Positions 172 to 16,526 of a stretch of 64,000 nt of DNA are shown here, one piece after another. The position numbers and the translations under genes were made by a program. The notes under the pieces are model-generated. The model ran no database searches. It saw only the letters and a list, made by a program, of their open reading frames with translations, and was not told where the DNA came from. Within the stretch, counting starts at the first letter, position 1; each line of letters opens with the position of its first letter. Origin of the DNA: Falsiroseomonas ponticola (lineage in GTDB: Bacteria; Pseudomonadota; Alphaproteobacteria; Acetobacterales; Acetobacteraceae); the NCBI RefSeq assembly GCF_016805305.1, contig NZ_JAERQN010000011.1:1-64000 (forward strand), read 5' to 3'.

Positions 172-223
172 CTAGGGCAAGAAATGCGTTCAGATGATTC
201 CATCCGAACGCGTATTGCCCTAG
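172..223. repeat. Dyad repeat 2, overlapping the ridA-like stop codon
   Basis: CTAGGGCAA pairs with TTGCCCTAG; nested inside, GCGTTC pairs with GAACGC and GATG with CATC. The right arm covers the stop codon (220-222) of the minus-strand RidA gene, so on that strand it would form a hairpin right at the end of the operon and could act as its terminator. It is related to dyad 1 in its GCGTTC/GAACGC core. Confidence 0.65.
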
Positions 224-1081: not shown

Positions 1082-2730
1082 GCGCCGGACTGGGCCTGCT
1101 TCCGCAGCGCGAAGCGCTGCAGCTTGCCGGTCTCGGTCCGCGGGAGGGCGGACACGAAGACAACGCTTCGCGGATATTTGTAGGGCGCGACCTCGGCCTT
1201 CACATGGTCCTGGAGCGCCTTGACCAGGGCCGCGTCCCCGGTGATGCCGTCCTTCAGCACGACATAGGCGCGCACCACCATCCCCCGTTCCGCATCCGGC
1301 GCGCCGACCACGCCGCATTCCTTCACGGCGGGATGGGTCAGCAGGGCGGATTCCACCTCCGGCCCCGCGATGTTGTAGCCGGCGGAGACGATCATGTCGT
1401 CGTTGCGGGCCTGGTACCAGAAATAGCCATCGGCATCCTGGATGTAGGTGTCGCCGGTGATGTTCCAGCCGCGCTCGACATATTGCGCCTGGCGCGGGTC
1501 ATCGAGATAGCGGCACCCCGTCGGCCCCTGCACGGCGAGCCTGCCCGGCGTGCCGCGCGGCACCTCGGCGCCGGCCTCGTCCACCACCCTGGCGCGGTAG
1601 CCCGGCACGGGGATGCCGGTGGCGCCGGGGCGGATCTGGTCCTCCCGCGCCGCGATGAAGATGTGCAGCATCTCCGTCGCGCCGATGCCGTCCATCAACT
1701 TGAGGCCCGTGGCCTTCTGCCAGGCCTCGAAGATCGGCACCGGCAGGGTTTCGCCGGCGGAGACGCATTTGCGCAGGCTGGAGAGGTCGTGCTCCCCGGC
1801 CCTGGCCGCCATGACGCGATAGGCGGTGGGCGCGGTGAAGCAGACCGTCGCGCGGTGATGCGCGATGGCGGCGGGCAGTTCCTCCGGCGGCGCCTTCTCC
1901 AGCAGCACGGCGGTGGCGCCGACGCGGAAGGGGAAGAGCACCAGCCCGCCGAGGCCGAAGGTGAAGGCGAGCGGGGGCGAGCCGATGAAGATGTCGCTGG
2001 GCTCCGGCTTCAGCACCTGCATGGCATAGCCGTCGCAGATCGCCAGCATGTCGCGATGGAAATGCAGCGTGCCCTTGGGTTCGCCCGTGCTGCCGCTGGT
2101 GAAGCCGATCAGGCAGACATCATCGGCGGCGGTGTCGCAGGCCGCGAAGCTGCCGGGCGCCTCCGCCACCATCGCCTCCAGCATCCCGTTGCCCCAGGTG
2201 ACGAGGTGCCGGAGGTCTGGCCCCTCCGCCTTGCGCAGTTCCTCGACCAGCCGCGCATCGCAAAGCGCATGCGTGATGCGCCCCTTGCGCAGCACCTGCG
2301 ACAATTCCTTGGCGCGCAGCAGCGGCATGGTGGCGACGACGACGCCGCCCGCCTTCAGCACGGCGAAATAGGCCGCGACCATCCAGGCATTGTTGGCGCT
2401 GCGCAGCAGCACGCGGTTGCCTGGCACCAGGCCGAGGCGCGAGACCAGCACATGCGCGATCCGGTCCACACGCTCCGCCAGCTGGCGATAGCTCAGCGTC
2501 TCCGCCGGCGTCACCAGCGCGGGGTGGTCGCCGCGGCCGCGCTCCAGGTTGCGGTCCAGCAGTTCCACCGCGCAGTTGAGGCGCGCGGGATACTGGAACT
2601 CCGGCCGGTCCAGCAGGAAGTCCGGCCACTGGTCGCGCGGGGGCAGGTTGTCCCGGCAGAAGCTGTCCTGGTGGGCGGATGCGCCCATGGCCTGCGTCAT
2701 CATCCCGTCCATCCCCGTCTCCCGGTTCAT
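1078..2730 (-). CDS. 2-aminobenzoate--CoA ligase-like (benzoate-CoA ligase family)
   Basis: A 550-residue ANL-superfamily adenylating enzyme. The phosphate loop [17 protein letters not shown] lies near residue 206, the ATEM motif follows in [12 protein letters not shown], the GDTY motif is near 425, and the C-terminal catalytic lysine is in [10 protein letters not shown] near 538. It would make an aryl-CoA from an aromatic acid, ATP and CoA. Benzoate/2-aminobenzoate ligases share this length and the NGMLE..FTFGLGG layout. The fused monooxygenase/reductase divergently encoded nearby argues for 2-aminobenzoate (anthranilate) or salicylate as substrate. Both ends overlap neighbouring genes by 4 bp. 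Confidence 0.85.
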
Positions 2731-3890
2731 GATGTGGATGTGCGACTGTCGCGTTCGGCGCGCGCGATCACGATGCGCTGCACCTCCGAGGCGCCTTCAT
2801 AGACCCGCAGCGCCCGGACTTCCCTGTAGAGTTCTTCGGCCTTGTGGCCCTTGGTGACGCCGAGGCCGCCATGGATCTGCACGTTGCGGTCGGCGCAGCG
2901 CTGCGCCGCCTCCGTCGCGTGCAGCTTGGCCATGGAGGCCTCCCGCGTGACGCGCGGCTGGCCGGAATCTTTCAGCCAGGCCGCGCGATAGACGAGAAGG
3001 GCGGAAGCCTCGACATCCACCGCGCTGTCGGCGATGGCGGCCTGGCTCATCTGCTGGTCGAACAGCGCGCCGCCGAACAGCTTTCTCGAACTGGCGCGTT
3101 CCACCGTCATGTCGAAGGCGCGGCGCGCGAAGCCGAGCGCGGCGGCGCCGACGGTGGCGCGGAACACGTCGAGCGTGCCCATCGCCACCTTGAAGCCCTC
3201 GCCGGGCTTACCGATGAGGTCATCGACGGAGACGCGGACATCCTCGAAGGCCAGCGTCGCCAGCGGATGCGGCGCCGTTACGTCGATCCGCTCCGCAATC
3301 GTCAGCCCCGGCGCATCGGCGGCGACGAGGAAGGCGGAGAGGCCCCGCGCGCCCGGTGCCTCGCCGGTGCGGGCAAAGACGATGTAGGAGGCCGCGATCC
3401 CGCCATTGCTGATCCAGGTCTTGCGCCCGTTCAGCCGCCAATGGCCATTGCCATCCGGCGTCGCGGTGGTGGCGAGTGCCGCCACATCGCTGCCCGCCTC
3501 CGGCTCGCTCAGCGCGAAGGCGGCGAGGTTGGTGCCCGCCCTCGCGCCCGGCAGCAGCCTTTCGCGCTGCGCCGCCGTGCCGAACAGCGTCACCGGCCCG
3601 GTGCCGAGCCCCTGCATGGCGAAGGCGAAATCCGCGAGGCCGCTATGCCGCGCTAGGATGTCGCGCGCGATGCAGAGGCTGCGCACGTCGAGCCTGCCAT
3701 CGGCGGGGCAGGGCACGCGCAGCAGCCCCGCATCGCCCATCGCGCGCGCCAAGCGCTGCACGCTGCCATCCGCATCATGCTCGTCGGACAGCGCCTCCGC
3801 ATGCTGCGCAGCCCAGGCCTCGACCTCCGCCGCCCAGTCGCGGTGGCGATCCTCGAAGAAGGGCCACTGGAGGAAGGTACGGTCTGCCAT
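2727..3890 (-). CDS. Acyl-CoA dehydrogenase
   Basis: A 387-residue flavoprotein with the standard ACAD arrangement: helical N-terminal domain, the FAD-contacting [12 protein letters not shown] segment near 130, WISNGG, the [28 protein letters not shown]-terminal block with the glutamate of YEGASE as the likely catalytic base. It would oxidise a saturated or cyclic acyl-CoA to the alpha,beta-enoyl form. It sits between hydratase and ligase with 1- and 4-bp overlaps, so it belongs to the beta-oxidation part of the aryl-CoA pathway after the ring has been reduced. Electron transfer flavoprotein genes are not in the window. Confidence 0.92.
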
Positions 3891-4717
3891 CAGTCGCCCT
3901 TGAAGACGGGGCGCTGCTTCGCCACGAAGGCGTCATAGGCGCGGCGGAAATCCTGCGTCGTCATGCAGAGCGCCTGCGCCACGGCCTCGGCTTCGATCGC
4001 CTGGTCCATGGACATGGCCCATTCCATCTGCAGCATGCGCTTGGTCATGGCATGGGCGAAGTTCGGACCCTCCGCGATCTCCCGCGCCAGCTTCGCCGCG
4101 GCGGCCTGGAGCGCATCGGGCTCATGCAGCGCGTTGAAGAAGCCCCAGGCCAGGGCCTCCTCGCCGCCCAGTGACCGGCCGAGATACAGCAGCTCGCTCG
4201 CCCGTCCCTGGCCGATGATGCGGGGCAGGATGGCGCAGGCGCCCATGTCGCAGCCCGCGAGGCCGACGCGGTTGAACAGGAAGGCGGTCTTGGCCCGCGC
4301 GGTGCCGAGGCGGATGTCGGAGGCCATGGCGATGATGGCGCCCGCGCCGGCGGCAATGCCGTCGATGGCCGCGATGATGGGCTGCGGGCAGGCGCGCATG
4401 GCCTTCACCAACTCGCCCGTCATGGCCGTGAACTGCATCAGCCCCTTGGTGTCGCGATCGAGCAGCGGGCCGATGATCTCATGCACATCGCCGCCCGAGC
4501 AGAAATTGCCGCCGGCGCCGGTGATGACGAAGGCCTTCACCGCATCGTCGTGGACGGCGGCGCGCAGGATCGCCGCCATCTCCGCGTAGCTGTCGAAGGT
4601 CAGCGGGTTCTTCCACTCCGGCCGGTTCAGCGTCAGCGTCGCGACGCCGCCCTCGATATCCAGCCGCAGATGCTGCGCCGTGTAGTCGGCAAGCGGGCCG
4701 CTGATGGCCGTGATCAT
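3890..4717 (-). CDS. Enoyl-CoA hydratase/isomerase family protein
   Basis: A 275-residue crotonase-fold protein. The oxyanion-hole strands are visible as [19 protein letters not shown] and [19 protein letters not shown], followed by [25 protein letters not shown]. It probably hydrates the enoyl-CoA from the dehydrogenase or hydrolytically opens a cyclic beta-oxoacyl-CoA, as some crotonase-fold enzymes do in ring-degradation pathways. The position of the usual second glutamate is not conserved in the DMGACAI segment, so it may not be a simple hydratase. Its ATG overlaps the marR stop (ATGA). Confidence 0.9.
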
Positions 4718-5235
4718 GGTGTTTCCTCGGGTGAAAGCGCGGCCCTGACGGAGCCCTTGGCCTGGCCGAGCAGGCGGAACAGCGCGGCGCGGTCGGCGGG
4801 TTCGAGGCCGCCCAGCAGTTCCGCCACCCAGCCCTCATGCGCCGCCGACTGACGTGCGAATTCGCGCTTGCCCTTGGCCGTCAGCCGCAGCATCTGCGCG
4901 CGGCGGTCGCCGGGCCGCGCGCGGCGTTCCACCAGCCCCTCGGCCTCCAGCCGCGTGGCCAGGCCGGTGACGTTGCCGTTGCTGACCATCATGCGGCGGG
5001 AGACGTCGCCCAGCGTGAGCCCCGCCGGCGCGCGGTCCAGCGCCGCCAGCAGGTCGAAGCGGGGCAGGGTGGTGTCGAAGTCCCGCCGGAGGCGGGTGCG
5101 GATCTCGCCCTCGATCAAGGTCGCGCAGGTCAGCAGCCGCAGCCAGAGGCGAAGGTCGTCCTTGTGGCCGGGCGGCGCGCCGGCCAGGGCCGTCTCCGCA
5201 TCCACCGCCACGGGCATCATGTCGTCCGGGGTCAT
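4714..5235 (-). CDS. MarR-family transcriptional regulator
   Basis: A 173-residue winged-helix protein. [47 protein letters not shown] is the helix-turn-helix with recognition helix and [17 protein letters not shown] is the wing, both characteristic of MarR regulators that respond to aromatic acids or their CoA thioesters. The ATG at 5235 overlaps the SDR stop (ATGA); the much longer open frame upstream is only the antisense/shadow of the SDR. Encoded within the operon it probably represses. Three matching 20-bp dyads at 5977, 6039 and 15657 are its likely operators. The ligand is plausibly an aryl-CoA. Confidence 0.92.
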
Positions 5236-5966
5236 GTCTCCCCCCCATCCACCGCGATGGCCTGGCCGTTGATGGCGGCGCTGCCGGGCAGGCAGAGGGC
5301 GAGCACCGCCGCGGCGACCTCCGCCGGCTGCACCAGCCGCTTCTGCGGGTTGTGCCTGGCGAGTTCCGCCCGCGCCTCGTCCTCGCCGCGCCCTGTCTTG
5401 GCGACGATGCGCGCCGCGCTCTCCGCCACGATGGCGGTATCCGTGAAGCCCGGGCAGACCGCATTCACGGTCACGCCCTTGGCCGCGACCTCCTGCGCCA
5501 GGGCCCGCACCAGGCCGAGCAGCCCATGCTTCGCGGCGGTATAGGCGGTGACATAGGGGTAGCCCTTCAGCGCCGCCGTGCTGGCGACCATCACGATCCG
5601 CCCGTCCCGCGCTTCCAGCATCCCGGGCAGCACCGCCTGCGCCGCGGCGACCGCGCCCAGCACATTCACCCGCCACATCCGATCGAACAGCCCGGCGTCG
5701 GACTTCAGGAAGGGCGCGCTTTCCGCGGCGCCCGCGGCATTCACCAGGATGTCGAAGCGGGGCAAAGCGGGCAGGGCGGTCACATCCGCCACCAGCAGCC
5801 CCGCCGCATCGGCCGCCTCCACCGCCGCGCGCAGCGGCGCCTCACGCCGCCCGAGCACCGTCACCACCGCTCCCGCGCGCGTCAGCGCTTGCGCGCAGGC
5901 GAGCCCGATGCCGGTGCCGCCGCCCGTGACGAGCGCAGCCTTGCCGAGGAGTGGCGACGCTTCCAT
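5232..5966 (-). CDS. SDR-family oxidoreductase, probable 3-hydroxyacyl-CoA dehydrogenase
   Basis: A 244-residue classical short-chain dehydrogenase. The NAD(P) site is TGGGTGIG near residue 15, NAAG near 80, the catalytic serine in VASTAALKG, YTAAKHG holds Tyr and Lys, and VCPGFTDT follows. It is the first gene of the minus-strand operon, transcribed from the divergent promoter region 5967-6084. It likely oxidises a 3-hydroxyacyl-CoA in the beta-oxidation-like lower pathway. Cofactor preference cannot be settled, though an arginine pair after the second strand (GRRE) hints at NADP. Confidence 0.9.
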   Translation of the reverse strand: MEASPLLGKAALVTGGGTGIGLACAQALTRAGAVVTVLGRREAPLRAAVEAADAAGLLVADVTALPALPRFDILVNAAGAAESAPFLKSDAGLFDRMWRVNVLGAVAAAQAVLPGMLEARDGRIVMVASTAALKGYPYVTAYTAAKHGLLGLVRALAQEVAAKGVTVNAVCPGFTDTAIVAESAARIVAKTGRGEDEARAELARHNPQKRLVQPAEVAAAVLALCLPGSAAINGQAIAVDGGET

Positions 5967-5976
5967 CCGACCTCCG

Positions 5977-5996
5977 ATGCTTGAAGCCTAAAACAT
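5977..5996. promoter_or_regulatory. Putative MarR operator, site 1
   Basis: ATGCTTGAAGCCTAAAACAT lies 10 bp upstream of the SDR start. It matches 15 of 20 positions of the near-palindromic site at 15657-15676 read on the opposite strand, including the core TTGAAGC.TAAA. Its centre is 62 bp from site 2 in the same divergent promoter region. Assignment to the MarR protein is inference. Confidence 0.65.
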
Positions 5997-6038
5997 CATC
6001 CGCCGGCGGCGCAACCTTGCAATCCGGTTGCTGCGCCA

Positions 6039-6058
6039 ATCTTTGAAGCCTAAACTAT
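6039..6058. promoter_or_regulatory. Putative MarR operator, site 2
   Basis: ATCTTTGAAGCCTAAACTAT lies 26 bp upstream of the monooxygenase ATG and matches 17 of 20 positions of the site at 15657-15676 read in reverse complement. With site 1 it brackets the divergent promoters, a typical repressor layout. Confidence 0.7.
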
Positions 6059-6084
6059 CTCGCGGCAGGGACAGGGGTGCAGCG

Positions 6085-8421
6085 ATGCGCATCGCGGTGA
6101 TCGGCGGCGGCCCGGCGGGCCTCTATTTCTCCATCCTGATGAAGCGGGACTTTCCGCAGGCGCGCATCACGGTGGTGGAGCGCAACCGCCCGGACGACAC
6201 CTTCGGCTTCGGCGTCGTCTTCAGCGACGCGACGCTGGATACCTTCCAGGCGGCGGATGAGCCGAGCTACCGCGCCATCACGGAAAGCTTCGCCTACTGG
6301 GACGACATCGCCATCGTCGCCAAGGGCCAGGAACACCGCATCAGCGGCAACGGCTTCTGCGGCTGTTCCCGCCGCACCCTGCTGATGCTGCTCTCCGACC
6401 GCGCCCGCGCGCTGGGCGTCGAGCTGGAATACCGGCGGGAGGCCTCGCCCGAGGATTTCCCCGATGCCGACCTCATCGTCGCCGCGGACGGCATCAACTC
6501 CCCCATCCGCGAACGCTTCCGCGACCATTTCAGGCCGGAAGTGGACCTCCGCCCCAACCGCTTCGCCTGGATGGGCAGCACGCGGCCCTTCGACGCCTTC
6601 ACCTTCTTCTTCACGGAGAGGCCGGAGGGCATCTTCATCGCCCATTGCTACCAGTACGAGGCCGGCGCCAGCACCTGGGTGCTGGAGACCGATCCCGACA
6701 CCTTCGCGAAGGCCGGCCTGGACCGGATGAACGAGGCGGAGTCGGCGGCCTATCTCGAAGGCGTCTTCGCGGAGGAACTGCAGGGCCATCGCCTCATCAC
6801 CAACCGGTCGATGTGGCGCCAATTCCCGACCATCACCTGCGGCCGCTGGGTGAAGGACAACATGGTCCTGCTCGGCGATGCCAAGGCCAGCGCGCATTTC
6901 TCCATCGGCTCGGGCACCAAGCTCGCCATGGAGGACGCGATCGGCCTGCACCAGGCGTTCCTGAAGGGCGGCGACGTCGCCACCTGCCTCCATCGCTACG
7001 AGACCGACCGGCGCGAGGATGTGGAGAAGACCCAGCACGCCGCCGGCGTCTCGCTCGTCTGGTTCGAGCATGTGAAGCGCTTCTGGGGCTTCTCCCCGAC
7101 TCGCTTCGCCTTCGGGGTGATGACGCGGTCCAAGGCCATCACCTGGGACAACCTCGCCCTCCGCGCGCCCGGCTTCGTGGCGGAGACACAGCGCGCGGTG
7201 GCGGAGGAGGCGCAGGCCGCCGGCCTGCCGGCCGATCCGCGCAAGCCGCCTATGTTCCAGCCCTTCGCGCTGCGCGACATGAAGCTCGCCAACCGTGTCG
7301 TCGTCTCGCCCATGTGCATGTATTCGGCGCCCGAAGGGGTCCCGGGCGACTTCCATGTCGCGCATTACGGCGCCCGCGCCATGGGCGGGGCCGGGCTGCT
7401 GTTCACGGAGATGACCTGCGTCAGCCCCACCGCCCGCATCACGCCGGGCTGCGCCGGCCTCTGGAACGATGAACAGCAGGCCGCCTGGACGCGCATCGTC
7501 GCGCTCGCCCACGCCACGTCACAGGCGAAGTTCTGCCTCCAGCTCGGCCATGCCGGGCGGAAGGGGGCGACGAAGCTGATGTGGGAGGGGATGGACCGGC
7601 CGCTCGCGGACGGCGCCTGGCCCATCCTTTCCGCCAGCGCGATCCCCTACTACCCCGAAAGCCAGGTGCCGCGCGCGATGACACGGGCGGACATGGACGA
7701 GGTGAAGGACGATTTCGTCGCGGCCACCCGCCGCGCCATCGCCTGCGGCTTCGACATGCTGGAGCTGCACTGCGCCCATGGCTACCTGCTGGCCAGCTTC
7801 CTCTCGCCCCTGACCAACCGCCGCGACGATGAGTATGGCGGCAGCGTCGGGAACCGGCAGCGCTATCCGCTCGAAATCTTCGAAGCGATGCGCGCCGTGT
7901 GGCCCGCGGAGAAGCCCATGTCGGTCCGCATCTCCGCGACCGACTGGGCGGAAGGCGGCCTGACGGATGATGATTGCCTGGCCATCGCGCGTGCCTTCGC
8001 GCAGGCGGGCGCGGACCTGATCGATGTCTCCACCGGCCAGACCGTGGCCGATGCCAGCCCGACCTATGGCCGCATGTTCCAGCTGCCCTGGTCCGACATG
8101 ATCCGGAACGAGGCCGGCATTGCCACGATGTGCGTCGGCAACATCACCAGCGCGGACCAGGTGAACACCATCATCGCCGCCAATCGCGCGGACCTGGTGG
8201 CGCTGGCGCGGCCGCATCTGACGAACCCGTCCTTCACCCTGCACGCCGCGGCGCAGTATGGCGTGAAGGATATCGCCTGCCCGCCGCAATACCTCTGGGG
8301 CAAGGATGCGCTGCTGCGCAACGCGGCGAAGGATCAGGCGGAACTGCGGGAGCTGAAGCTGAAGGCCCGCCCGCGGAGCCACAAGCCGGAAGCGCAGACA
8401 CTCCCGCGGGCGGCGGAGTAA
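6085..8421 (+). CDS. 2-aminobenzoyl-CoA monooxygenase/reductase-like (bifunctional salicylyl-CoA 5-hydroxylase/oxidoreductase family)
   Basis: A 778-residue two-domain flavoprotein. Residues 1-370 are a PHBH-type FAD monooxygenase: GGGPAG dinucleotide fold at 7-12, FGFGVVFSD, and [20 protein letters not shown] near 260. Residues about 388-750 are an old-yellow-enzyme FMN domain beginning [22 protein letters not shown], with [27 protein letters not shown] and RRDDEYGGS. This fusion is known from 2-aminobenzoyl-CoA monooxygenase/reductase, which hydroxylates and then reduces the aromatic ring without cleavage. The ATG at 6085 follows AGGGACAGGGG and starts right at the FAD motif. It is divergent from the operon that supplies ligase and beta-oxidation enzymes, so the substrate is most likely 2-aminobenzoyl-CoA; salicylyl-CoA is the alternative. 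Confidence 0.92.
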
Positions 8422-8435
8422 CCCCCGCCGCCCGC
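8406..8435. terminator. Bidirectional hairpin between convergent genes
   Basis: Perfect 11-bp arms, GCGGGCGGCGG at 8406-8416 and CCGCCGCCCGC at 8425-8435, with an 8-nt loop that contains the monooxygenase stop codon (8419-8421). It separates the monooxygenase from the convergent small exported protein. There is no U-run, so factor-independent termination is uncertain. Confidence 0.6.
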
Positions 8436-8445
8436 CAGGGCGTCC

Positions 8446-8784
8446 TCAGCCACGCGGCGCGGAGAGCGGCGCCAGCACGAAGTCGGTGTTCTCGCCGTTG
8501 GAGACCGACTGCGACACCACGCCCGGGGCCTGGTGCTGGGCGTAGTTGTCATCGAGGTAGGTCACCGCCACCTCATGGCCCGGCATCTGCTGCGTCACCA
8601 CGCGGCCGCCGCCCACGACGTTGCCCTGGTAGCCCGGCGCATAGACGATCTCGCTGTTCTCGCCCGTGCCGACGGAACGGGGGTAGGAGGGGGCGTCGGC
8701 GGCCTGGGCGGTGGCGGCGCCGAAGGCCAGGGCCGTGCCGAACAGCGCGGCGGCCAGGGTCAGCTTGGAGGAGATGGTGGTCAT
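8446..8784 (-). CDS. Small exported protein of unknown function
   Basis: 112 residues with a clear Sec signal peptide: MTTISSKLTLAAALFGTALAFGAATAQA followed by ADAPSYPRS, cleavage expected after AQA near residue 28. The mature part of about 84 residues has two similar segments, VGTGENSEIVYAPGYQ and VSNGENTDFVLAPLSA, that look like an internal repeat (GEN[ST][ED][IF]V.AP). No cysteines and no enzymatic motif are visible. I do not recognise a named family. It is divergent from the LysR gene, whose product may control it. Confidence 0.75.
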   Translation of the reverse strand: MTTISSKLTLAAALFGTALAFGAATAQAADAPSYPRSVGTGENSEIVYAPGYQGNVVGGGRVVTQQMPGHEVAVTYLDDNYAQHQAPGVVSQSVSNGENTDFVLAPLSAPRG

Positions 8785-8917
8785 GGTCGTTGGCTTTCTT
8801 CTCGATCAGGGTGGCGACCCGATGTCGCCGTCCGTGGCCAGAAGATGCGTCCCCGGCGGTCGTTGCGGGATTGCCGAATGTTCTTCGACCGGTATGCAGG
8901 AATGCATGCCCTCAAAT

Positions 8918-8944
8918 TGTGTCATGCCGTAACAGCATGACACA
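8918..8944. promoter_or_regulatory. Perfect 10-bp inverted repeat over the lysR start codon
   Basis: TGTGTCATGC (8918-8927) and GCATGACACA (8935-8944) are perfect inverted repeats separated by 7 bp. The right arm contains the ATG of the LysR gene at 8937. It could be an autoregulatory operator or, in the mRNA, a hairpin that hides the start codon. Confidence 0.65.
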
Positions 8945-9827
8945 CAGCCTGGACTGGAGCCTGCTCCAGGCCTTCGTCGCGGTGATGCGCGCCGGCAGCC
9001 TTTCCGCCGCCGCGCAGACCCTGCGCCTGACGCAGCCGACCGTCGGCCGCCAGATCCGCACGCTGGAGGAGCAGGTGGGGGAGGCGCTGTTCGACCGCAC
9101 GCCCCAGGGCCTGCGGCCCACCGACCGCGCCATGGCGCTGATGGAACATGCCGAGCATCTGGAGCAGGCGGCGCAGGCGCTGTCCGTCTCCATCACCGGC
9201 AAGCCGGAGAGCCCGACCGGCACGGTGCGGATCACGACGACGGAGGTCTTCGGCGTGGAGCGGCTGCCCGCGCTGCTCAGCCCCTTCCTGCGCACCCATC
9301 CCGGCATCACGATCGAGGTCTCGATCGGCATGCAGGTGGAGAACCTGCTGCGCCGGGACGCCGACATCGCCATCCGCTTCTCCCGCCCCGAGCAGCCGGA
9401 GCTGATCGCGCGGCAGATCGGGACCGTGGAACTCGGCTTTTTCGCGTCGGAGGATTACGTGGCGCGCCATGGCGAACCGCCGGCGCTGGACCGGCTCGAA
9501 GGCCATGTCTGGGTGGGGTTCGACCGCGATTCCTTCGGCGCCCGCGCGGCCGAACGGCTGAAGCTCGATGTGACCAACACCCGCTTCGCCTTCAAGGCGG
9601 ACAGCATGCTCGCCCAGCGCCAGGCCATCGCGCAGGGGCTTGGGATGGGCGTGCTGGAAGCCCGCGCGGCGAGCCGCGTGCCGGGATTGCGGCGGCTGCT
9701 GACGGAGGAATTCGCGCCGCGCTCCGGCGTCTGGCTGGTGGCGCATGCGGATGTGCGGCAGGGGCGGCGCTACCGCGCCGTCTTCGACCACCTGGCGAAG
9801 GTGCTGCCCGGGGAGTTCAAGGACTGA
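8937..9827 (+). CDS. LysR-family transcriptional regulator
   Basis: 296 residues. The N-terminal winged helix reads DWSLLQAFVAVMRAGSLSAAAQTLRLTQPTVGRQIRTLEEQVGEALFDR, the standard LysR HTH. From about residue 90 the substrate-binding domain begins (GTVRITTTEVFGVERLPALLSPFLRTHPGI), with DIAIRFSRPEQPELIARQIG typical of the CrgA/AaeR-like branch. ATG at 8937 sits six residues before the HTH, as in homologues. There is no obvious Shine-Dalgarno; the start lies in a perfect inverted repeat. Likely targets are itself and the divergent exported protein; the neighbouring Bug gene is also possible. Confidence 0.92.
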   Translation: MTHSLDWSLLQAFVAVMRAGSLSAAAQTLRLTQPTVGRQIRTLEEQVGEALFDRTPQGLRPTDRAMALMEHAEHLEQAAQALSVSITGKPESPTGTVRITTTEVFGVERLPALLSPFLRTHPGITIEVSIGMQVENLLRRDADIAIRFSRPEQPELIARQIGTVELGFFASEDYVARHGEPPALDRLEGHVWVGFDRDSFGARAAERLKLDVTNTRFAFKADSMLAQRQAIAQGLGMGVLEARAASRVPGLRRLLTEEFAPRSGVWLVAHADVRQGRRYRAVFDHLAKVLPGEFKD

Positions 9828-9952
9828 GCCTCGGTGGCCCGCGCCTGTCCGGCCGCGGCTCCCTGGTCACGGCCACCGGCACCCGCCGCGGTTCTTCGAC
9901 CGCTGGCCTGGCGCCGGCGCGTTGACGCGGGCCACCCCCCATCCCCGGGCCG

Positions 9953-9976
9953 GGCCGCCGGCGCGTGCCGGCGGCC
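9953..9976. terminator. Strong GC hairpin between convergent lysR and Bug genes
   Basis: GGCCGCCGGC (9953-9962), 4-nt loop GCGT, GCCGGCGGCC (9967-9976): perfect 10-bp arms, located in the 164-bp space between two convergent genes. No U-run on either side, so it may work with Rho or as a 3' end stabiliser. Confidence 0.55.
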
Positions 9977-9991
9977 GGGCGGATCAGGCGA

Positions 9992-10954
9992 TCAGCTGTT
10001 GATCCAGGGCGCGCGGCGCCACAGGTCGGCATACTGCGTCTGGGTGGCGCGCATGCGCGCTTCCCACTGCGCGCCGGGCTCCAGCGTCGGCTCGATGAAC
10101 TGCGCCTCGAAGCTGCGGCGCGTGGCGGGGTCGGCGGCGGCTTCCTGCACGGCGTCGCGCAGGCGCTCCAGGATGCGGGACGGCGTCGCGACCGGCACCA
10201 CAAGGCCGCGTTCCGAATACATCTCGAAATCCAGGCCCAGGCTCTTGAAGGTCGGCGTTTCCGGCGCGAAGCGGCTGCGCGCCGCGCCGCCATGCGCGAT
10301 GAAGCGCACGCCATCGGGGTTGGGCATCACCTCCCCCACCGAGACGCAGTTCACCTGCACCTGGCCGGCGATGAGGGCGGTGCGCTGGATCGGCGCGCCG
10401 GTGTAGTGGATCAGCGTGAAGCGCGCCCCCGTCAGGCGGGAGATCTGCGCCATCATCAGGTGGTCGTCGGTGCCGATGCCGGAGGTGGAGACGACGATCC
10501 CCTCGGGATCCGCCAGCGCGCGGCGCACCAGGTCGGGCAGGTCGCGGATCGGGCTGTCGGCGCGGATGATCAGGCCCGTCGGGTCCGTCATGATGTTGCC
10601 GATGAAGCCGAAGCTGTCGAGATTGTACTGCGCCCGCCGCTCCACCGGCACCGTGACGAAGGAGGGCATGTTGGTCAGGCCCAGCACCTGCCCATCCGGC
10701 CGCGACCGCGCGACATAGGTCAGCGCGACCTCGCTGGACGCGCCGGGCTTGTTCACCACCGTGATGGGCTGGCCGAGCCGCGTTTCCAGGTGCCGCGCGA
10801 AGAGCCGCGCGACGATGTCCGTGCCGCCACCCGGGGCGAAGCCGACGACGAGTTCGACCGGCCGGTCGGGCCGCCAGGGCTGGGCGAAGGCGGGCGCGGC
10901 CAGGGGAGCCGCGAGGAAGGCACCGAGGATGCTGCGACGGCCAAGCTGCGACAT
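9992..10954 (-). CDS. Bug-type tripartite tricarboxylate transporter substrate-binding protein (TctC family)
   Basis: 320 residues with an export signal (RRSILGAFLAAPLAAPAFAQ, twin-arginine-like) and the Bug family core: WRPDRPVELVVGFAPGGGTDIVARLFARHLE, VVNKPGASSEVA, DGQVLGLTN. Bug proteins bind small carboxylates or aromatic acids in the periplasm and hand them to TctAB or act as sensors. A GGAGG sits 8 bp before the ATG. No TctA or TctB is in the window, so it is an orphan receptor, which is common in Acetobacteraceae and Burkholderiales. It lies downstream of the liv-type operon in the same direction, 129 bp away. Confidence 0.92.
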   Translation of the reverse strand: MSQLGRRSILGAFLAAPLAAPAFAQPWRPDRPVELVVGFAPGGGTDIVARLFARHLETRLGQPITVVNKPGASSEVALTYVARSRPDGQVLGLTNMPSFVTVPVERRAQYNLDSFGFIGNIMTDPTGLIIRADSPIRDLPDLVRRALADPEGIVVSTSGIGTDDHLMMAQISRLTGARFTLIHYTGAPIQRTALIAGQVQVNCVSVGEVMPNPDGVRFIAHGGAARSRFAPETPTFKSLGLDFEMYSERGLVVPVATPSRILERLRDAVQEAAADPATRRSFEAQFIEPTLEPGAQWEARMRATQTQYADLWRRAPWINS

Positions 10955-11064
10955 GATCGAACCTCCAGAACTCGTCTGGCGATCAAATGCATCGTCACCG
11001 GCTTTGGTTGAATAGGATGATTGCGCGGCGGCGGTGAATGCTGTGAAGCCGCCGACTCGCCGGG

Positions 11065-11089
11065 CTGTAAAGCGGTAAAGGCTTTACAG
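11065..11089. terminator. Hairpin overlapping the stop codon of the ABC operon
   Basis: CTGTAAAGC (11065-11073) and GCTTTACAG (11081-11089) form a 9-bp stem with a 7-nt loop. The stem includes the TAA (11084-11086) of the last transporter gene. It lies between that gene and the co-directional Bug gene, so it may terminate the operon or reduce read-through. Confidence 0.5.
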
Positions 11090-11796
11090 GTGCAGGTAGC
11101 TGTCCCGGACCTGCGGCGCCGCGGCCAGCTCCGTGCTGGTCCCGGTCCAGACCGTGCGGCCCTTCTCGATGACCACATGCCGGTCCGCGAGGCGCGTCAC
11201 CGCCGCCAGGTTCTTGTCGATCAGCAGGATCGCCTGGCCCTCCGCCTTCAGCTGCGCCAGCACGTACCAGATCTCCGCGCGGATCAGCGGCGCCAGGCCC
11301 TCCGTCGCCTCATCCAGGATGAGCAGCCGCGGATTGGTCATCAGCGCGCGGCCGATCGCGACCATCTGCTGTTCGCCGCCCGAGAGCTTGGCGCCGGGAT
11401 TGCTGCGGCGTTCGCGCAGGCGGGGGAAGAAGTCGTACACCGCCGGCAGCGTCCAGCGCGGCGCGCCGGGGCCGCGATGGGCGGCGGTGGCCAGCAGGTT
11501 CTCCTCCACCGTCAGGGTCGGGAAGACCTGCCGCCCCTCCGGCACCAGCCCCAGCCCCTGGCGCGCCACCTTGTGCGCCGGCAGGCCCGCGACGGAGGCG
11601 CCATCGAGCGTGATCTCCCCGCCCCAGATGCGCCCGCCGACGGAGGGCAGCAGGCCCATGATGGCGCGCACGGTGGTGGTCTTGCCCATGCCGTTGCGGC
11701 CGAGCAGCGTCACCACCTCCCCCGCGCCGATCGAGAGGTCGATCCCGAACAGGACCTGGCTGCCGCCATAGCCCGCGGTGAGGCCCGCCAGGCGGA

Positions 11797-11800
<4 letters not shown>
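11084..11800 (-). CDS. Branched-chain-type ABC transporter ATP-binding protein (LivF-like)
   Basis: 238 residues. Walker A is LLGRNGMGKTTT near residue 37, the signature is LSGGEQQMVAIGRAL, Walker B is LLILDEATEGLAP. Length and the LNGRNGMGKTT/EGLAP variants identify the LivF branch of hydrophobic amino acid/aromatic acid uptake ATPases. Its ATG overlaps the upstream LivG-like stop (ATGA). It is the last gene of a five-gene operon led by a periplasmic binding protein; the upstream operator suggests aromatic acid rather than leucine transport. Confidence 0.93.
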
Positions 11801-12559
<759 letters not shown>

Positions 12560-12567
<8 letters not shown>

Positions 12568-13507
12568 GGCGGAACCCCTTCGCGACCTGGCCAGGGATGC
12601 CCGACAGGCCGTTTGGCAGGAACAGCACGGCCAGGATCAGCAGCACGCCGAACAGGATGCGCCAATGCTCCCATTGGTGGGACAGCCACTCCTCCAGCAG
12701 CACGAAGCCCAGCGCGCCGAGCAGCGCGCCATGCAGCCCGGACAGCCCGCCGAGGATGACCATGAACAGCAACTCGCCGGAGCGCTGCCAGGAGATGTAG
12801 GCGGGAGCCACGAACTCCGTCGCATTGGCGAAAAGGAACCCGGCCGCGCCGCCGATCGCACCGGCGATGACGTAGGCCGTGAGGCGATAGGGATAGGGGT
12901 CGAAGCCCAGCGCCTGCGCCCGCATGGGATTGCCCTTCACGGCGCGCAGCACGCGGCCGAAGCGGGAGGCCAGCAGGACGCGGCAGAGCAGCCAGGCCAG
13001 CGCCAGCGCGCCGAGGCAGACATAGTGGAAGGCCAGCTTGTTCTCCAGCAGCCGCCCGCCCGCCACGGTGTTGCGGGCGTAGAGCGTGTAGCCATCGTCG
13101 CCGCCATAGCCGGCCAGCGAGGTCGCGGTGAAGAAGGCCATCTGCCCGAAGGCCAGCGTGATCATGATGAAGTGGACGCCGCTGGTGCGCACCGCGACCG
13201 CACCCGTGACCAGCGCGAAGCCCGCCGCGGCGAGGATCGCGACGGGCAGCACCACATGCGCCTCCACGATCCGCGCATCGTCCAGGATGACGACGGCATA
13301 GGCGCCGAAGCCCATCATCGCCGCATGGCCCATGGAGACGAGGCCCGCCCCGCCCACGAGCAGGGAGAGCGAGACGGCCGCCATGGCCAGGATCATCGCC
13401 CGCGCCATCAGCGTCAGCACATAGCCCTCGCCGAATCCTGCGAAAGGGGCCGCCGCCAGCGCGCCGAGCAGCAGCAGCGCCGGCAGTTCGGCCTTCAGCG
13501 CCCGCAT
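12560..13507 (-). CDS. Branched-chain-type ABC transporter permease (LivM-like)
   Basis: 315 residues with about nine hydrophobic segments, starting MRALKAELPALLLLGALAAAPFAG. The LivM signature GHAAMMGFGAYAV and a loop with GVHFIMITLAFGQM are visible, as is SGLHGALLGALGFVLLEEWL near the C-terminus. The start at 13507 overlaps the LivH-like stop; the long open frame upstream is a shadow of that gene. It is an inner-membrane partner of the LivH-like subunit. Confidence 0.92.
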
Positions 13508-14430
13508 CAGGAAGCCCGCACCGGGAACAGCCCCGCCGGCCGGAAGGCCAGGATCGCCGCCATGGCGATGTAGATCAGCATGGAGGAGAGCGCCGCGCCG
13601 ACCTGGCGTGCCTCCGACGGCGAGAGGAACAGCCGCATGAGGTCCGGCATCAGGGACCGCCCCAGCGTCTCCACCAGCCCGACCAGCAGCGCCGCCAGGA
13701 AGGCGCCGCGGATGCTGCCGATGCCGCCGATGACGATGACGACGAAGGCCAGGATCAGCAGGTTGTCGCCCATCCCGGGCTCCACGGAGAGGATCGGCGC
13801 CGCCAGCACACCCGCGAAGCCCGCGAGCATCGCCCCGAAGCCGAAGACCACCATGAAGAGCCGCCGGATATCGACACCGAGTGCCGCCACCATCGGCGCG
13901 TTGGTGGCGCCCGCCCGCACCAGCATGCCGACCCTGGTGCGCTCCACCAGCCACCAGAGCAGCCCCGCCGTGGCGAGGCCCCCGGCGATGATGGCGAGGC
14001 GATAGGTGGGGTAGAGCAGCCCCTCCATCACGCGGATGCCGCCGGTCAGCGCATCCGGCAGCGGCACCTGCAGCGGCGCCGCGCCGAACACCATCTTCAC
14101 GCCCTGGTTCAGCACCAGGATGACGCCGAAGGTCGCCAGCACCTGCGCCATGTGGTCGCGGTCATAGAGGTGCCGGAAGACCAGGAATTCCAGCAGCAGC
14201 CCGAACAGCAGCGCCGCCGGCAGGGCCAGCAGCAGCGCCAGCCAGAAGCTGCCGGTCTGGGCCGCGAAGAAGGCGGCGAAATAGGCGCCGACCATGTACT
14301 GCACGCCATGCGCCAGGTTGATGAAATCCATCACCCCGAAGACCAGCGTCAGCCCCGCCGCGATCAGGAAGAGAAGGATGCCGAGCTGCAGGCCGTTCAG
14401 GCCCTGCACCAGCAGAAGCGTGGTCGACAT
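13507..14430 (-). CDS. Branched-chain-type ABC transporter permease (LivH-like)
   Basis: 307 residues, strongly hydrophobic. MSTTLLLVQGLNGLQLGILLFLIAAGLTLVFGVMDFINLAHG is the characteristic LivH N-terminus, and FGFGAMLAGFAGVLAAPI with IGGIGSIRGAFLAALLVGLVETLG are the conserved EAA-like and C-terminal segments. The ATG at 14430 is 14 bp after the binding-protein gene. It forms the heterodimeric channel with the LivM-like subunit. Confidence 0.93.
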   Translation of the reverse strand: MSTTLLLVQGLNGLQLGILLFLIAAGLTLVFGVMDFINLAHGVQYMVGAYFAAFFAAQTGSFWLALLLALPAALLFGLLLEFLVFRHLYDRDHMAQVLATFGVILVLNQGVKMVFGAAPLQVPLPDALTGGIRVMEGLLYPTYRLAIIAGGLATAGLLWWLVERTRVGMLVRAGATNAPMVAALGVDIRRLFMVVFGFGAMLAGFAGVLAAPILSVEPGMGDNLLILAFVVIVIGGIGSIRGAFLAALLVGLVETLGRSLMPDLMRLFLSPSEARQVGAALSSMLIYIAMAAILAFRPAGLFPVRAS

Positions 14431-14444
14431 CCTTAGCCCGCTCC

Positions 14445-15638
14445 TCAGCCGGCGGGCATGCGGCATTCCGCCGCGAAGGGATCGGTGACGTTGTCGAAGA
14501 CCTTGCGCTCATGCTCGGTCTGGAACTTGCCGTCCGCCCGCCGCGCCACCTTGGCCAGCCAGAAATCCTGCACGGGGAAGTGGTTGGCGCCGAAGGCGAA
14601 GGGCCCGCGCACGCTGCGGAAATCGGCGGCGCGGATCGCGCTGCGCAGCGCGCCCTTGTCGGCCAGGTTGCCGCCGGTGCGGCGGATGGCGCTGTCCAGC
14701 AGGAAGGCGCTGTCATAGGCATGCGCCGCGTAGCTGGCGGGCACGTAGTTGAACTGGCCCTCGAAATCCCGCACGAAGCGGGCGTTCTGCTCGTTGGGCA
14801 GCGTCGGCGTCCAGGTGGTGCCGGTGAAGAAGCCGACCGCGGCCTCCCCCTGCGCGGGCAGCACCGCCTCATCCACCGTGAAGGCGGAGAGGAAGGGGAT
14901 GCTGGCGAGCCCGGCCTGGCGATACTGCCGCACCAGATTCACGCCGAGCCCGCCCGGCATGAAGGTGAACAGCGCATCCGGCCGCGCCGCCGCGATCCGC
15001 GCCAGCTCCGCGGAGAAGTCGAGCTGCGTCAGCGGCGTGTAGATCTCGTCCACCACCTCGCCCCGGAAGCGGGACTTGAAGCCCGCCGCGGCATCGCGCC
15101 CCGCCTGGTAGTTCGGCGTCATGATCATGACGCGGCGATACCCCGCATCCTGCGCCGCCTGGCCCATCACCGCATGGTTCTGGTCGTTGACGTAGGAGGT
15201 GGCGAAGAAGAAGGGGTTGCAGCCGCGCCCCGCGAAGGGGGAGGGGCCGGCATTGGTGGAGATCAGGAAGGTCTGCGTATCCGTCACCGGGCGCAGGATG
15301 GCGCCCAGGATGTTGGAGAAGACGACACCGACGATCACGTCGCAGCGGTCGCGCTCGATCGCCGCGCGCACCTTCGTCACCGCCACGTCGGGGCGCAGCT
15401 CGTCATCGATGACCAGCACCTCGGCACCCCGCCCGCCCAGGCGGTTCTCCAGGTGGCGCATGCCGAGCATGAAGCCATCCCGCAGATGCGTGCCCAGCGA
15501 GGCCTGCGGCCCCGTCAGCACCGCCACCAGCCCCACCTTCACCGGCGCTGCCTGCGCGCGCGCCACCAGCGGCATGGCCAGCGCCGAGGCGCCGAGACCC
15601 AGCGCCGCGCGCCGGCCCAGTTCGATCCGCATCGTCAT
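14445..15638 (-). CDS. ABC transporter substrate-binding protein (LivK/HBA-type)
   Basis: 397 residues. A twin-arginine-like leader (GRRAALGLGASALAMPLVARAQA) is followed by the type I periplasmic fold PVKVGLVAVLTGPQASLGTHLRDGF, FLISTNAGPS and YVPASYAAHAYDSAFLLDSAI. It is the first gene of the transporter operon. Related receptors next to aromatic-acid genes bind benzoates and phenylpropenoids rather than amino acids. A near-perfect 20-bp dyad matching the sites at the aromatic locus lies 19 bp upstream of the ATG, so the likely ligand is the aromatic acid degraded there (inference). Confidence 0.93.
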   Translation of the reverse strand: MTMRIELGRRAALGLGASALAMPLVARAQAAPVKVGLVAVLTGPQASLGTHLRDGFMLGMRHLENRLGGRGAEVLVIDDELRPDVAVTKVRAAIERDRCDVIVGVVFSNILGAILRPVTDTQTFLISTNAGPSPFAGRGCNPFFFATSYVNDQNHAVMGQAAQDAGYRRVMIMTPNYQAGRDAAAGFKSRFRGEVVDEIYTPLTQLDFSAELARIAAARPDALFTFMPGGLGVNLVRQYRQAGLASIPFLSAFTVDEAVLPAQGEAAVGFFTGTTWTPTLPNEQNARFVRDFEGQFNYVPASYAAHAYDSAFLLDSAIRRTGGNLADKGALRSAIRAADFRSVRGPFAFGANHFPVQDFWLAKVARRADGKFQTEHERKVFDNVTDPFAAECRMPAG

Positions 15639-15656
15639 CCCTTCCGTCTCCCGGAG

Positions 15657-15676
15657 ATAGTTTAAGCTTCAACTAT
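15657..15676. promoter_or_regulatory. Putative MarR operator, site 3 (best copy)
   Basis: ATAGTTTAAGCTTCAACTAT is a palindrome except for one symmetric position pair (18 of 20 bases self-match). It lies 18 bp upstream of the binding-protein ATG, a place where a bound repressor would block transcription. It matches the two sites in the divergent aromatic promoter about 9.6 kb away. Confidence 0.75.
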
Positions 15677-15679
15677 TGC

Positions 15680-15754
15680 CCGCATGCAAGTGGTTTAGCG
15701 TGCGCCGCACGCGAGCGGTTTAGCGGCCCCCGCATGCAAGTCGTCCCGCATGCT
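15680..15754. repeat. Three tandem 25-bp imperfect repeats over the end of the hydrolase gene
   Basis: Units start at exactly 15680, 15705 and 15730 and begin CCGCATGCAAGT, CCGCACGCGAGC and CCGCATGCAAGT. Units 1 and 2 share GGTTTAGCG in the same register; unit 3 diverges in its second half. The stop codon of the minus-strand hydrolase (15720-15722) lies in unit 2. Confidence 0.65.
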
Positions 15755-16526
15755 CCACCAGCGCGCTGCCCGGATCGGCCAGCGGCGCGATGACCGTGAA
15801 GTGGTTGAGGCCCGGCAGCGCCTCCGCCGTGCCGCCCCAGGCCGCGGCCATGTCGCGGGTCTGGCGCAGGTATTCCGGGCTTTCGTCACCGCCAACCACG
15901 CAGTGGATGGTCCCGCCCGGCTTCGGCAGGAAGCGGGGGGAGACGGCGCGCGCCTCCGCCGCGCCGATGCGCAGCGCCGCGCCGATGCTGGTCGGCAGCA
16001 GGGGCTCCAGCTCGAACACGCCGGAGATCGGCAGCGCGGCGGGGACCAGGTCCGCGGGCAGCGCCGGGTCCAGCGCGCGCCAATCGGTTGCCAGCATCAT
16101 CGCCGCCAGCTGCCCGCCGGCGGAATGGCCGCTGACCATCAGGCGCCGCCCATGCCGGCGATGCAGGAAGGCGCAGGCGGCCCGCATCTGCGCGACGATC
16201 GTGCCCACGCTGACGCCGGGCGCCAGGTCATAGGACGGGATGGCCACCGCGATGCCGCGGCCGTTCAACCCCCGCGCGCAATGGCTGACCCATTCGCGCC
16301 CCAGCGCCATCCAGTAGCCGCCATGGATGAAGACGGCCATGGCCACCGCCTCTCCCGCCGGCCAGAACAGGTCGAGCCTCTCCCGCTCCCCGGCCCCATA
16401 GGCCAGGCCGAGTTCGGCCCGGGGGCAGGCCTCCCGCCAGGCGGCGGCGTCGCGCTGCCAGCCCTGCATCACGGCGGGGTGTTCGGGGACGCGGGCGCGG
16501 TTGTTGTATTCGGCTTCGAGGTCCAT
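15720..16526 (-). CDS. Alpha/beta hydrolase, arylformamidase (kynurenine formamidase)-like
   Basis: 268 residues. The oxyanion motif HGGYW near residue 66, the nucleophile elbow GHSAGG near 132, the acid in GGDESPEY and the histidine in LNHFTV give a complete triad. HGGYW hydrolases of this size include kynurenine formamidases and related esterases. If it is one, N-formylkynurenine breakdown would feed the 2-aminobenzoate pathway encoded in this window; no kynureninase or tryptophan dioxygenase is visible, so this stays tentative. The ATG at 16526 (MDLEAEYNNRARVPEHP) matches family N-termini better than the upstream start at 16577. The C-terminus runs into a 25-bp tandem repeat. Confidence 0.85.
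   Translation of the reverse strand: MDLEAEYNNRARVPEHPAVMQGWQRDAAAWREACPRAELGLAYGAGERERLDLFWPAGEAVAMAVFIHGGYWMALGREWVSHCARGLNGRGIAVAIPSYDLAPGVSVGTIVAQMRAACAFLHRRHGRRLMVSGHSAGGQLAAMMLATDWRALDPALPADLVPAALPISGVFELEPLLPTSIGAALRIGAAEARAVSPRFLPKPGGTIHCVVGGDESPEYLRQTRDMAAAWGGTAEALPGLNHFTVIAPLADPGSALVEHAGRLACGGR

What the first reader, a model, noticed from the sequence alone, without database searches (positions are those of the whole stretch)
5977..15676. One 20-bp dyad shared by the aromatic-acid locus and a distant transporter operon
ATAGTTTAAGCTTCAACTAT at 15657-15676 (18 of 20 self-palindromic) precedes the ABC binding-protein gene; read in reverse complement, sites at 6039-6058 (17/20) and 5977-5996 (15/20) flank the divergent promoters of the SDR-MarR operon and the monooxygenase/reductase. 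Established: MarR proteins in such operons bind dyads of this size and respond to aryl-CoAs. Inference: the MarR at 4714-5235 coordinates uptake and degradation, so the liv-type transporter imports the same aromatic acid.
Basis: partly seen in the sequence, partly recalled or inferred. Interest (0 to 1): 0.72.

Follow-up and report, generated by a model that had tools for sequence, protein, structure and literature searches.

The report
MarR regulon linking tryptophan, anthranilate, transporter
A short mirror-image DNA tag, almost unique in this bacterium's genome, marks the genes that break down anthranilate, genes that make anthranilate from tryptophan, and an uptake pump, so one regulator probably switches them all together.

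Summary
The three sites are real, and the genome holds one more. A 20-mer pattern matches four places in 6.73 Mb, all on one contig: two between the SDR-MarR operon and the anthraniloyl-CoA monooxygenase/reductase, one before the liv-type transporter, and a fourth about 110 kb further on, between tryptophan 2,3-dioxygenase and a kynureninase-like gene. The last makes sense of the set: tryptophan to kynurenine to anthranilate to anthraniloyl-CoA. In relatives the dyad is a conserved island in diverged promoters: 14 of 15 fetched transporter loci at >=71% identity have it, the exception being a second copy. In 150 family genomes, two or more sites occur in 25 of 33 with the MarR and 10 of 117 without. 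One other genus has all four sites in a single cluster. In several others the same dyad precedes genes resembling the auxin (IAA-to-anthranilate) pathway, so feeder modules may be exchanged. The tryptophan link is lineage-specific (4 of 13 same-genus kynA loci). The coordination inference is well supported; MarR binding, the ligand (anthraniloyl-CoA?) and the transporter's cargo remain inference. It works like CouR, a known MarR regulating an aryl-CoA pathway and a LivK-type importer: a new member of a known kind.

The parts
5977..5996 (-). operator-like dyad ATGTTTTAGGCTTCAAGCAT, 10 bp before the SDR start
   Evidence: conserved island in relatives
6039..6058 (-). operator-like dyad ATAGTTTAGGCTTCAAAGAT, 26 bp before the monooxygenase/reductase start
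15657..15676 (+). operator-like dyad ATAGTTTAAGCTTCAACTAT, 18 bp before the ABC solute-binding protein start (that gene is on -)
   Evidence: upstream of 14 of 15 fetched SBP loci at >=71% identity
4714..5235 (-). MarR-family regulator, proposed repressor of all these operons (autoregulated through 5977-5996)
   Evidence: Pfam MarR_2/MarR; orthologues next to the dyad in relatives
5232..5966 (-). SDR oxidoreductase, first gene of the operon
3890..4717 (-). enoyl-CoA hydratase family protein
   Evidence: NF006107, 458 bits against cut-off 330
2727..3890 (-). acyl-CoA dehydrogenase-like (below curated cut-offs)
1078..2730 (-). benzoate-CoA-ligase-family protein, probable 2-aminobenzoate-CoA ligase
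   Evidence: TIGR02262, 379.6 bits against cut-off 375.25; substrate inferred
617..1081 (-). YbgC/FadM-like thioesterase (below curated cut-offs; 617-1024 was scanned)
220..624 (-). RidA family imine/enamine deaminase
   Evidence: PF01042
6085..8421 (+). two-domain monooxygenase/old-yellow-enzyme, named salicylyl-CoA 5-hydroxylase/oxidoreductase by NCBIfam; probable 2-aminobenzoyl-CoA monooxygenase/reductase
   Evidence: NF006101, 1117 bits against cut-off 1078; substrate inferred
14445..15638 (-). liv-type solute-binding protein
   Evidence: PF13458; closest solved chains 4evq, 4zpj, 4ey3
13507..14430 (-). liv-type permease (LivH-like)
   Evidence: gene; order in relatives; name by position and recall
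12560..13507 (-). liv-type permease (LivM-like)
   Evidence: name by position and recall
11797..12567 (-). ABC ATPase (LivG-like)
   Evidence: name by position and recall
11084..11800 (-). ABC ATPase (LivF-like)
   Evidence: name by position and recall
15720..16526 (-). alpha/beta hydrolase upstream of the SBP gene; distantly like kynurenine formamidase; no dyad of its own here
   Evidence: PDB 4e11 at E 2.6e-8 but 2pbl and 9n8r score better; found beside the SBP gene in the 14 loci L092-L105

Best explanation
The 20-bp dyad is the operator of the MarR protein encoded at 4714-5235. In the absence of inducer a MarR dimer sits on the four operators and blocks transcription of (i) its own operon SDR-MarR-ECH-ACAD-CoA ligase-thioesterase-RidA, (ii) the anthraniloyl-CoA monooxygenase/reductase, (iii) the liv-type importer, and (iv) outside the window, tryptophan 2,3-dioxygenase and the divergent kynureninase-like gene. 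A pathway metabolite, most likely 2-aminobenzoyl-CoA (anthraniloyl-CoA), releases it. The regulon joins uptake, production of anthranilate from tryptophan, and CoA-dependent ring degradation. Shown computationally: sites, rarity, gene context, conservation, co-occurrence. Inferred: binding by this MarR, repression, the ligand, the enzymes' and the transporter's substrates.
For: Four perfect 20-mer sites in 6.73 Mb, all in promoter gaps of genes that fit one route. Two dyads (score 21 or more of 28) in the monooxygenase/SDR gap in 13 of 13 same-genus genomes, own included, with that gap on one contig. Dyad upstream of 14 of 15 fetched SBP loci at >=71% identity; the one without is a second copy in G004. 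Alignments show the core as an island of conservation. >=2 sites in 25 of 33 MarR-positive (E <= 1e-30) against 10 of 117 MarR-negative family genomes. G062 has kynU-site-kynA, RidA-ligase-ECH-MarR-SDR-two sites-monooxygenase and liv-SBP-site-hydrolase in one 20-kb stretch. In Bradyrhizobium valentinum a dyad lies between kynureninase-kynA and the hydrolase. In 80 named loci the dyad (score >=23, 200 bp upstream) precedes 35 of 60 monooxygenase, 26 of 59 SDR and 4 of 21 SBP genes but 0 of 66 RidA, 0 of 63 ECH and 0 of 21 LivH genes; shuffles expect 0 to 0.03 per gene class. The LysR gene at 8937 was not found in the fetched locus of 7 of the 13 genomes, all of which keep the sites.
Against: No binding or expression data. 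The kynA/kynU dyad is in only 4 of 13 same-genus kynA loci, and in 4 of all 21 kynA loci fetched; those four species are close (kynA 98-100% identical). In the 80 named loci 0 of 8 kynA genes have it directly upstream; in L161 kynA is second in its operon, but the matching hydrolase-kynureninase-kynA cluster of another Bradyrhizobium (L276) shows no dyad of 23 or more, nor do the hydrolase genes of L206, L213 and L214 (16-16.7). Distant SBP loci score lower (4 of 21 at 23 or more). The short core alone is no commoner than its control in several relatives (G001 4 against 7; G105 4 against 4), so specificity there rests on the 20-mer and on position. 34 of 117 MarR-negative genomes have at least one site (20 of the 34 are 2.9 Mb or more), 78 sites in all against 40 for the control. 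Co-occurrence is not corrected for relatedness. The own kynureninase-like protein passes only Pfam KYNU_C (29.4 bits, cut-off 27) and the general Aminotran_5 model, and does not hit TIGR01814.
Confidence: 0.77

Rival explanations
1. Another regulator, such as the LysR encoded at 8937-9827 inside the locus, binds the dyad, and the MarR does something else.
For: A LysR gene lies between the monooxygenase and the transporter in the window and in 5 of 12 fetched same-genus relatives with an unbroken gap.
Against: In the other 7 of those 12 no such LysR was found in the fetched region (tblastn, E 1e-15) yet the sites are there, while the MarR is in all 12. Sites track the MarR across the family. 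LysR sites are usually T-N11-A (general knowledge, also in a PMC6449761 passage), which this even dyad is not.
Confidence: 0.1
2. The MarR and dyad are right but the transporter carries tryptophan, kynurenine or N-formylkynurenine rather than anthranilate.
For: Kynurenine-pathway genes carry the same dyad in some lineages; a formamidase-like hydrolase sits beside the SBP gene.
Against: Closest solved SBPs include R. palustris proteins that I recall as benzoate-derivative binders (one search gives the chains, not the ligands); CouP, a LivK-family protein, binds aromatic acids (PMC3610893 passages).
Confidence: 0.35
3. The pathway substrate is salicylate (salicylyl-CoA 5-hydroxylase), as the NCBIfam name says, and the kyn site is incidental.
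For: NF006101 name passes its cut-off.
Against: A fourth perfect site exactly at kynA/kynU, the same arrangement in G062 and a site at the B. valentinum kyn cluster; RidA in the operon suits an imine-producing amino substrate (inference).
Confidence: 0.08
4. Chance similarity of AT-rich palindromes.
For: Only three short sites were offered, two of them imperfect palindromes.
Against: About 0.004 matches expected in the genome; two found besides the query site itself, control 0; conserved in diverged promoters.
Confidence: 0.01

Closest known systems
CouR (MarR, R. palustris and Rhodococcus jostii) with the CouPSTU transporter
   Same: MarR regulator of an aryl-CoA pathway; in R. palustris CouP is a LivK-family SBP and its transporter shares regulation by CouR (PMC3610893 passages); p-coumaroyl-CoA abrogates DNA binding by Rhodococcus CouR (start of abstract in search listing, PMC4737184).
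   Different: Different pathway (p-hydroxycinnamates); window MarR is only distantly related (PDB 6c28 at E 1.1e-5); no ligand shown here.
IadR and IadR2 (MarRs of the IAA-to-anthranilate iad locus; PMC9613470, sections 7 and 10 and passages)
   Same: MarR regulators around anthranilate formation; in some Acetobacteraceae the dyad precedes iad-like genes; that paper found no ligand or DNA site for IadR2.
   Different: IadR (7kfo) is distant (E 1.1e-5). IadR2 is probably a separate group: Bradyrhizobium macuxiense carries both a window-type MarR (L200) and a 36%-identical MarR in its iad-like cluster (L273). Published IadR2 sequences were not at hand to test.
abm pathway of Azoarcus/Aromatoleum (2-aminobenzoate-CoA ligase, 2-aminobenzoyl-CoA monooxygenase/reductase; recalled)
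   Same: Two-domain monooxygenase/reductase and benzoate-type CoA ligase.
   Different: Regulator and transporter of that pathway not compared; substrate of the window enzymes untested.
KynR (Lrp/AsnC regulator of kynurenine genes in Pseudomonas/Burkholderia; recalled)
   Same: Controls kynurenine-pathway genes.
   Different: Different protein family and, as recalled, no anthraniloyl-CoA pathway or transporter in the regulon.

Membership tests
MarR-family catabolic repressor | winged-helix MarR domain | tested here: met
   PF12802 52.8 bits (cut-off 27), PF01047 45.1 bits (cut-off 24.6)
MarR-family catabolic repressor | gene next to its presumed operator and the regulated pathway, conserved in relatives | tested here: met
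MarR-family catabolic repressor | direct DNA binding relieved by a pathway ligand | not testable with these tools
   needs purified protein
Anthraniloyl-CoA (abm) pathway | fused flavin monooxygenase plus old-yellow-enzyme domain and a benzoate-type CoA ligase | tested here: met
   NF006101 1117.2 bits (cut-off 1078) and TIGR02262 379.6 bits (cut-off 375.25)
Anthraniloyl-CoA (abm) pathway | activity on 2-aminobenzoyl-CoA | not testable with these tools
   the NCBIfam name says salicylyl-CoA, so the substrate rests on context
Kynurenine pathway feeding the regulon | tryptophan 2,3-dioxygenase | tested here: met
   TIGR03036 395.4 bits (cut-off 390.7)
Kynurenine pathway feeding the regulon | kynureninase | tested here: inconclusive
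   own protein: PF22580 29.4 bits (cut-off 27), no TIGR01814 hit at E 0.001, no PDB hit at 1e-5; B. valentinum counterpart passes TIGR01814
Kynurenine formamidase | hydrolase related to a proven kynurenine formamidase | tested here: inconclusive
   15720-16526 hits 4e11 at 2.6e-8 but two other hydrolases score better; NCBIfam HaHSL_fam is below cut-off; four cyclase-family (PF04199) genes elsewhere could do the job
IadR (IAA-binding MarR) | close sequence relation to IadR | tested here: not met
   7kfo at E 1.1e-5 only
IadR2 | orthology to MarR_50 / MarR_Bj2 | tested here: inconclusive
   published sequences not at hand; MarRs found in iad-like clusters of B. valentinum (L269) and B. macuxiense (L273) are 50% and 36% identical to the window MarR
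Aromatic-acid LivK-type transporter (CouPSTU type) | SBP binds an aromatic acid | not testable with these tools
   sequence relation to 4evq, 4ey3 etc. only

The most novel reading that the evidence does not exclude
This MarR is the master switch of an 'anthranilate node': it senses anthraniloyl-CoA and always controls the ring-degrading genes, while the feeder modules and importers under its dyad are exchanged between lineages: tryptophan-kynurenine genes in this clade, in G062 and in B. valentinum and near relatives, IAA (iad-like) genes in other Acetobacteraceae, and at least two different liv-type importers.
Probability: 0.45. Interest if true: 0.68.

Novelty: new member of a known kind. 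Interest (0 to 1): 0.52.

Why it matters
It gives a testable gene set, regulator and importer for tryptophan breakdown through anthraniloyl-CoA, a route that the GapMind authors say they left out for lack of knowledge (PMC9007349, passage seen). It also suggests how one repressor and its operator can recruit different upstream pathways (tryptophan or the plant hormone auxin) to one shared intermediate, which can be followed across Alphaproteobacteria.

Tried and rejected
Considered and rejected or left open. LysR as the binder: see rivals. The core match at C11:859397: between a DUF1194-like gene and a DegT-like aminotransferase (names recalled from sequence), lacks the outer bases, treated as chance. 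IadR2 identity: followed (5 of 20 named genomes had an IadD-like gene at E 1e-90); B. macuxiense has both MarR types, so the idea is weakened. Sigma-70 promoter scan of the two window gaps: no hit; the alignment shows a conserved CTTGC 5' of the SBP dyad that may be a -35 element, inference only. Hydrolase as the only formamidase: rejected, four PF04199 genes exist. PDB search with the own kynureninase-like protein: no hit at 1e-5. Literature: nine searches listed no paper that I recognised as describing this regulon; only open-licence PMC text is held and only the listed top rows were seen.

Rows dropped. One search found 18 SBP matches at >=71% identity; 15 came as loci and were scored. Of the other three, all second copies, those of G000 and G012 have no core match beside them and that of G013 was not examined. 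In one search, 6 of 30 SBP loci (L106, L108, L111, L115, L116, L119; all under 60% identity) gave no upstream region because the alignment did not start near the N-terminus; of the 9 other loci under 60%, two had a dyad (L117 22.0; L118 24.0, 180 bp away) and seven scored 19 or less. In one search genes whose upstream 200 bp ran off the locus, whose alignment began after residue 30, or under 35% identity were skipped; monooxygenase and SDR often share one gap, and 5 of the 6 hydrolase hits are one identical site in Bradyrhizobium. regions were chosen because they held sites (or, for G056, kynA), so they are not frequencies.
Full report
OBSERVATION. The generalised 20-mer has exactly four perfect matches (5977, 6039, 15657, 125386); the next best are three places at two mismatches, control one.

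THE FOURTH SITE. It lies between tryptophan 2,3-dioxygenase (C2:124538-125362, minus; TIGR03036 above cut-off) and a divergent kynureninase-like gene (C2:125426-126574, plus; Pfam KYNU_C just above cut-off, no TIGR01814 hit). The window operons encode a benzoate-type CoA ligase, acyl-CoA dehydrogenase-like protein, enoyl-CoA hydratase, SDR, RidA and the two-domain monooxygenase/reductase. Together these read as tryptophan to kynurenine to anthranilate to anthraniloyl-CoA and on. The substrate assignment is inference from context; NCBIfam calls the monooxygenase 'salicylyl-CoA 5-hydroxylase/oxidoreductase'.

FOOTPRINTING IN RELATIVES. MarR orthologues (77-99% identity) occur in all 14 same-genus genomes searched. 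The monooxygenase/SDR gap holds two dyads (21 or more of 28) in 13 of 13 same-genus genomes, own included, in which the gap is on one contig; in G005 the monooxygenase-side contig also has both, and G014's MarR contig ends before the gap. Five fetched loci from other genera have two (L137, L138, L140) or one (L139, L141). Upstream of the transporter SBP gene, 14 of 15 fetched loci at >=71% identity have a dyad (21.7 or more, beginning 36-64 bp before the aligned start); the exception is a second, 80%-identical copy in G004 (14.7). The own genome also has such a second copy (C24:29201) and no dyad on that contig. Alignment of the promoters shows the TTxAAGCxTAAA core as an island of conservation. 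The kynA/kynU dyad is present in 4 of 13 same-genus kynA loci, the window's closest relatives, and absent (19 or less) in 9; over all 21 kynA loci fetched it is 4: a lineage-specific member of the regulon. The short core TTNARGCYTNAA by itself is 5 against 0 in the own genome but no commoner than its control in several relatives (for example G001 4 against 7), so there position and the full 20-mer carry the argument.

CO-OCCURRENCE. In 150 family genomes (counted), the 20-mer at <=1 mismatch occurs at least twice in 25 of 33 MarR-positive and 10 of 117 MarR-negative genomes (1 of the 91 MarR-negative genomes of 2.9 Mb or more); at least once in 28 of 33 and 34 of 117. MarR-negative genomes hold 78 sites in all against 40 for the reversed control. 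These genomes are related, so the Fisher values overstate independence.

WIDER VIEW. G062, another genus, has the whole regulon in one 20-kb stretch: kynU-dyad-kynA, RidA-ligase-ECH-MarR-SDR-two dyads-monooxygenase, liv operon-SBP-dyad-hydrolase. In 80 named loci from a genome scan (Acetobacteraceae, Bradyrhizobium, Bosea, Microvirga, Aurantimonas and others), dyads scoring 23 or more lie upstream of 35 of 60 monooxygenase, 26 of 59 SDR, 9 of 79 MarR, 7 of 57 ligase, 6 of 26 hydrolase and 4 of 21 SBP genes, and 0 of 66 RidA, 0 of 63 ECH, 0 of 21 LivH, 0 of 23 LivG, 0 of 8 KynA genes; shuffles expect 0 to 0.03 for each class. In Bradyrhizobium valentinum (L161) the hydrolase-side dyad lies in the divergent promoter of a kynureninase (TIGR01814 above cut-off)-kynA operon, and the same site is before the hydrolase in L159, L172, L188 and L190; a similar cluster in another Bradyrhizobium (L276) shows none of 23 or more. 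In G056, a class-level relative, a 48%-identical MarR lies directly before kynA with a dyad (23.4) before the MarR, though the core is rarer than its control in that genome (6 against 28). In G025, G017 and G110 a dyad (22-25) precedes a different, 40-44%-identical liv operon, and in G090 a 55%-identical one.

FEEDER SWAP. In G018, G065, G093, G105 and G107, chosen because they had extra sites (20-mer at <=1 mismatch: 4, 2, 5, 4, 4, control 0 in each), dyads precede an indolepyruvate-oxidoreductase-alpha-like gene (5 of 5), an LLM monooxygenase (3 of 5: G018, G093, G105) or liv/peptide transporters (likeness judged by eye for all but G105). Only proteins of G105, two of G093 and one of G065 were family-searched; G105's alpha subunit is below the curated IOR_alpha cut-off (275 against 651 bits), and its cluster also holds a Rieske oxygenase, thiolase and cyclase-family gene. 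These gene types resemble iad genes that turn IAA into anthranilate (PMC12633357 passages; partly recalled). So the same dyad may join different anthranilate sources to one ring-degrading core. Other sites in the fetched set precede unrelated-looking genes, such as a GMC oxidoreductase in G065 (L251).

MECHANISM. Inferred: a MarR dimer on an even dyad within each promoter region represses; an aryl-CoA, probably anthraniloyl-CoA, induces. The precedent is CouR, whose DNA binding p-coumaroyl-CoA abolishes (PMC4737184, start of abstract in the listing) and which controls a LivK-family importer in R. palustris (PMC3610893 passages). Each step beyond sequence is untested.

VERDICT. It is a new member of a known kind (MarR/aryl-CoA catabolic regulon with importer); the nine literature searches listed under Tried and rejected did not show it.

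Noticed in passing
window 15677-15741: Imperfect short repeats (GCATGCAAG...GTTTAGCG) lie just upstream of the SBP dyad; relatives keep a CTTGC element there, perhaps a promoter element that was duplicated here.
   Followed up: partly
G000 C24:29201-30391: A second, 80%-identical copy of the transporter SBP without the dyad; G004, G012 and G013 also carry second copies.
   Followed up: partly
L242, L245, L248, L252, L259: The dyad before iad-like (IAA degradation) genes in several Acetobacteraceae genera.
   Followed up: partly
L273 8951-9448 and 9448-9930: Bradyrhizobium macuxiense iad-like cluster carries a MarR closest to PDB 3boq (E 3e-36) next to a weakly MarR-like gene; possible identity of IadR2.
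   Followed up: partly
window 17559-22622: A 1687-aa open frame with many tandem acidic repeats that look cadherin/RTX-like (by eye, no family search).
   Followed up: no
window 9992-10954 and 8446-8784: A TctC-type binding protein and a small protein without a Pfam hit sit between the two operons; among 12 unbroken same-genus relatives the small protein is found in 5 and a close TctC in 3.
   Followed up: no
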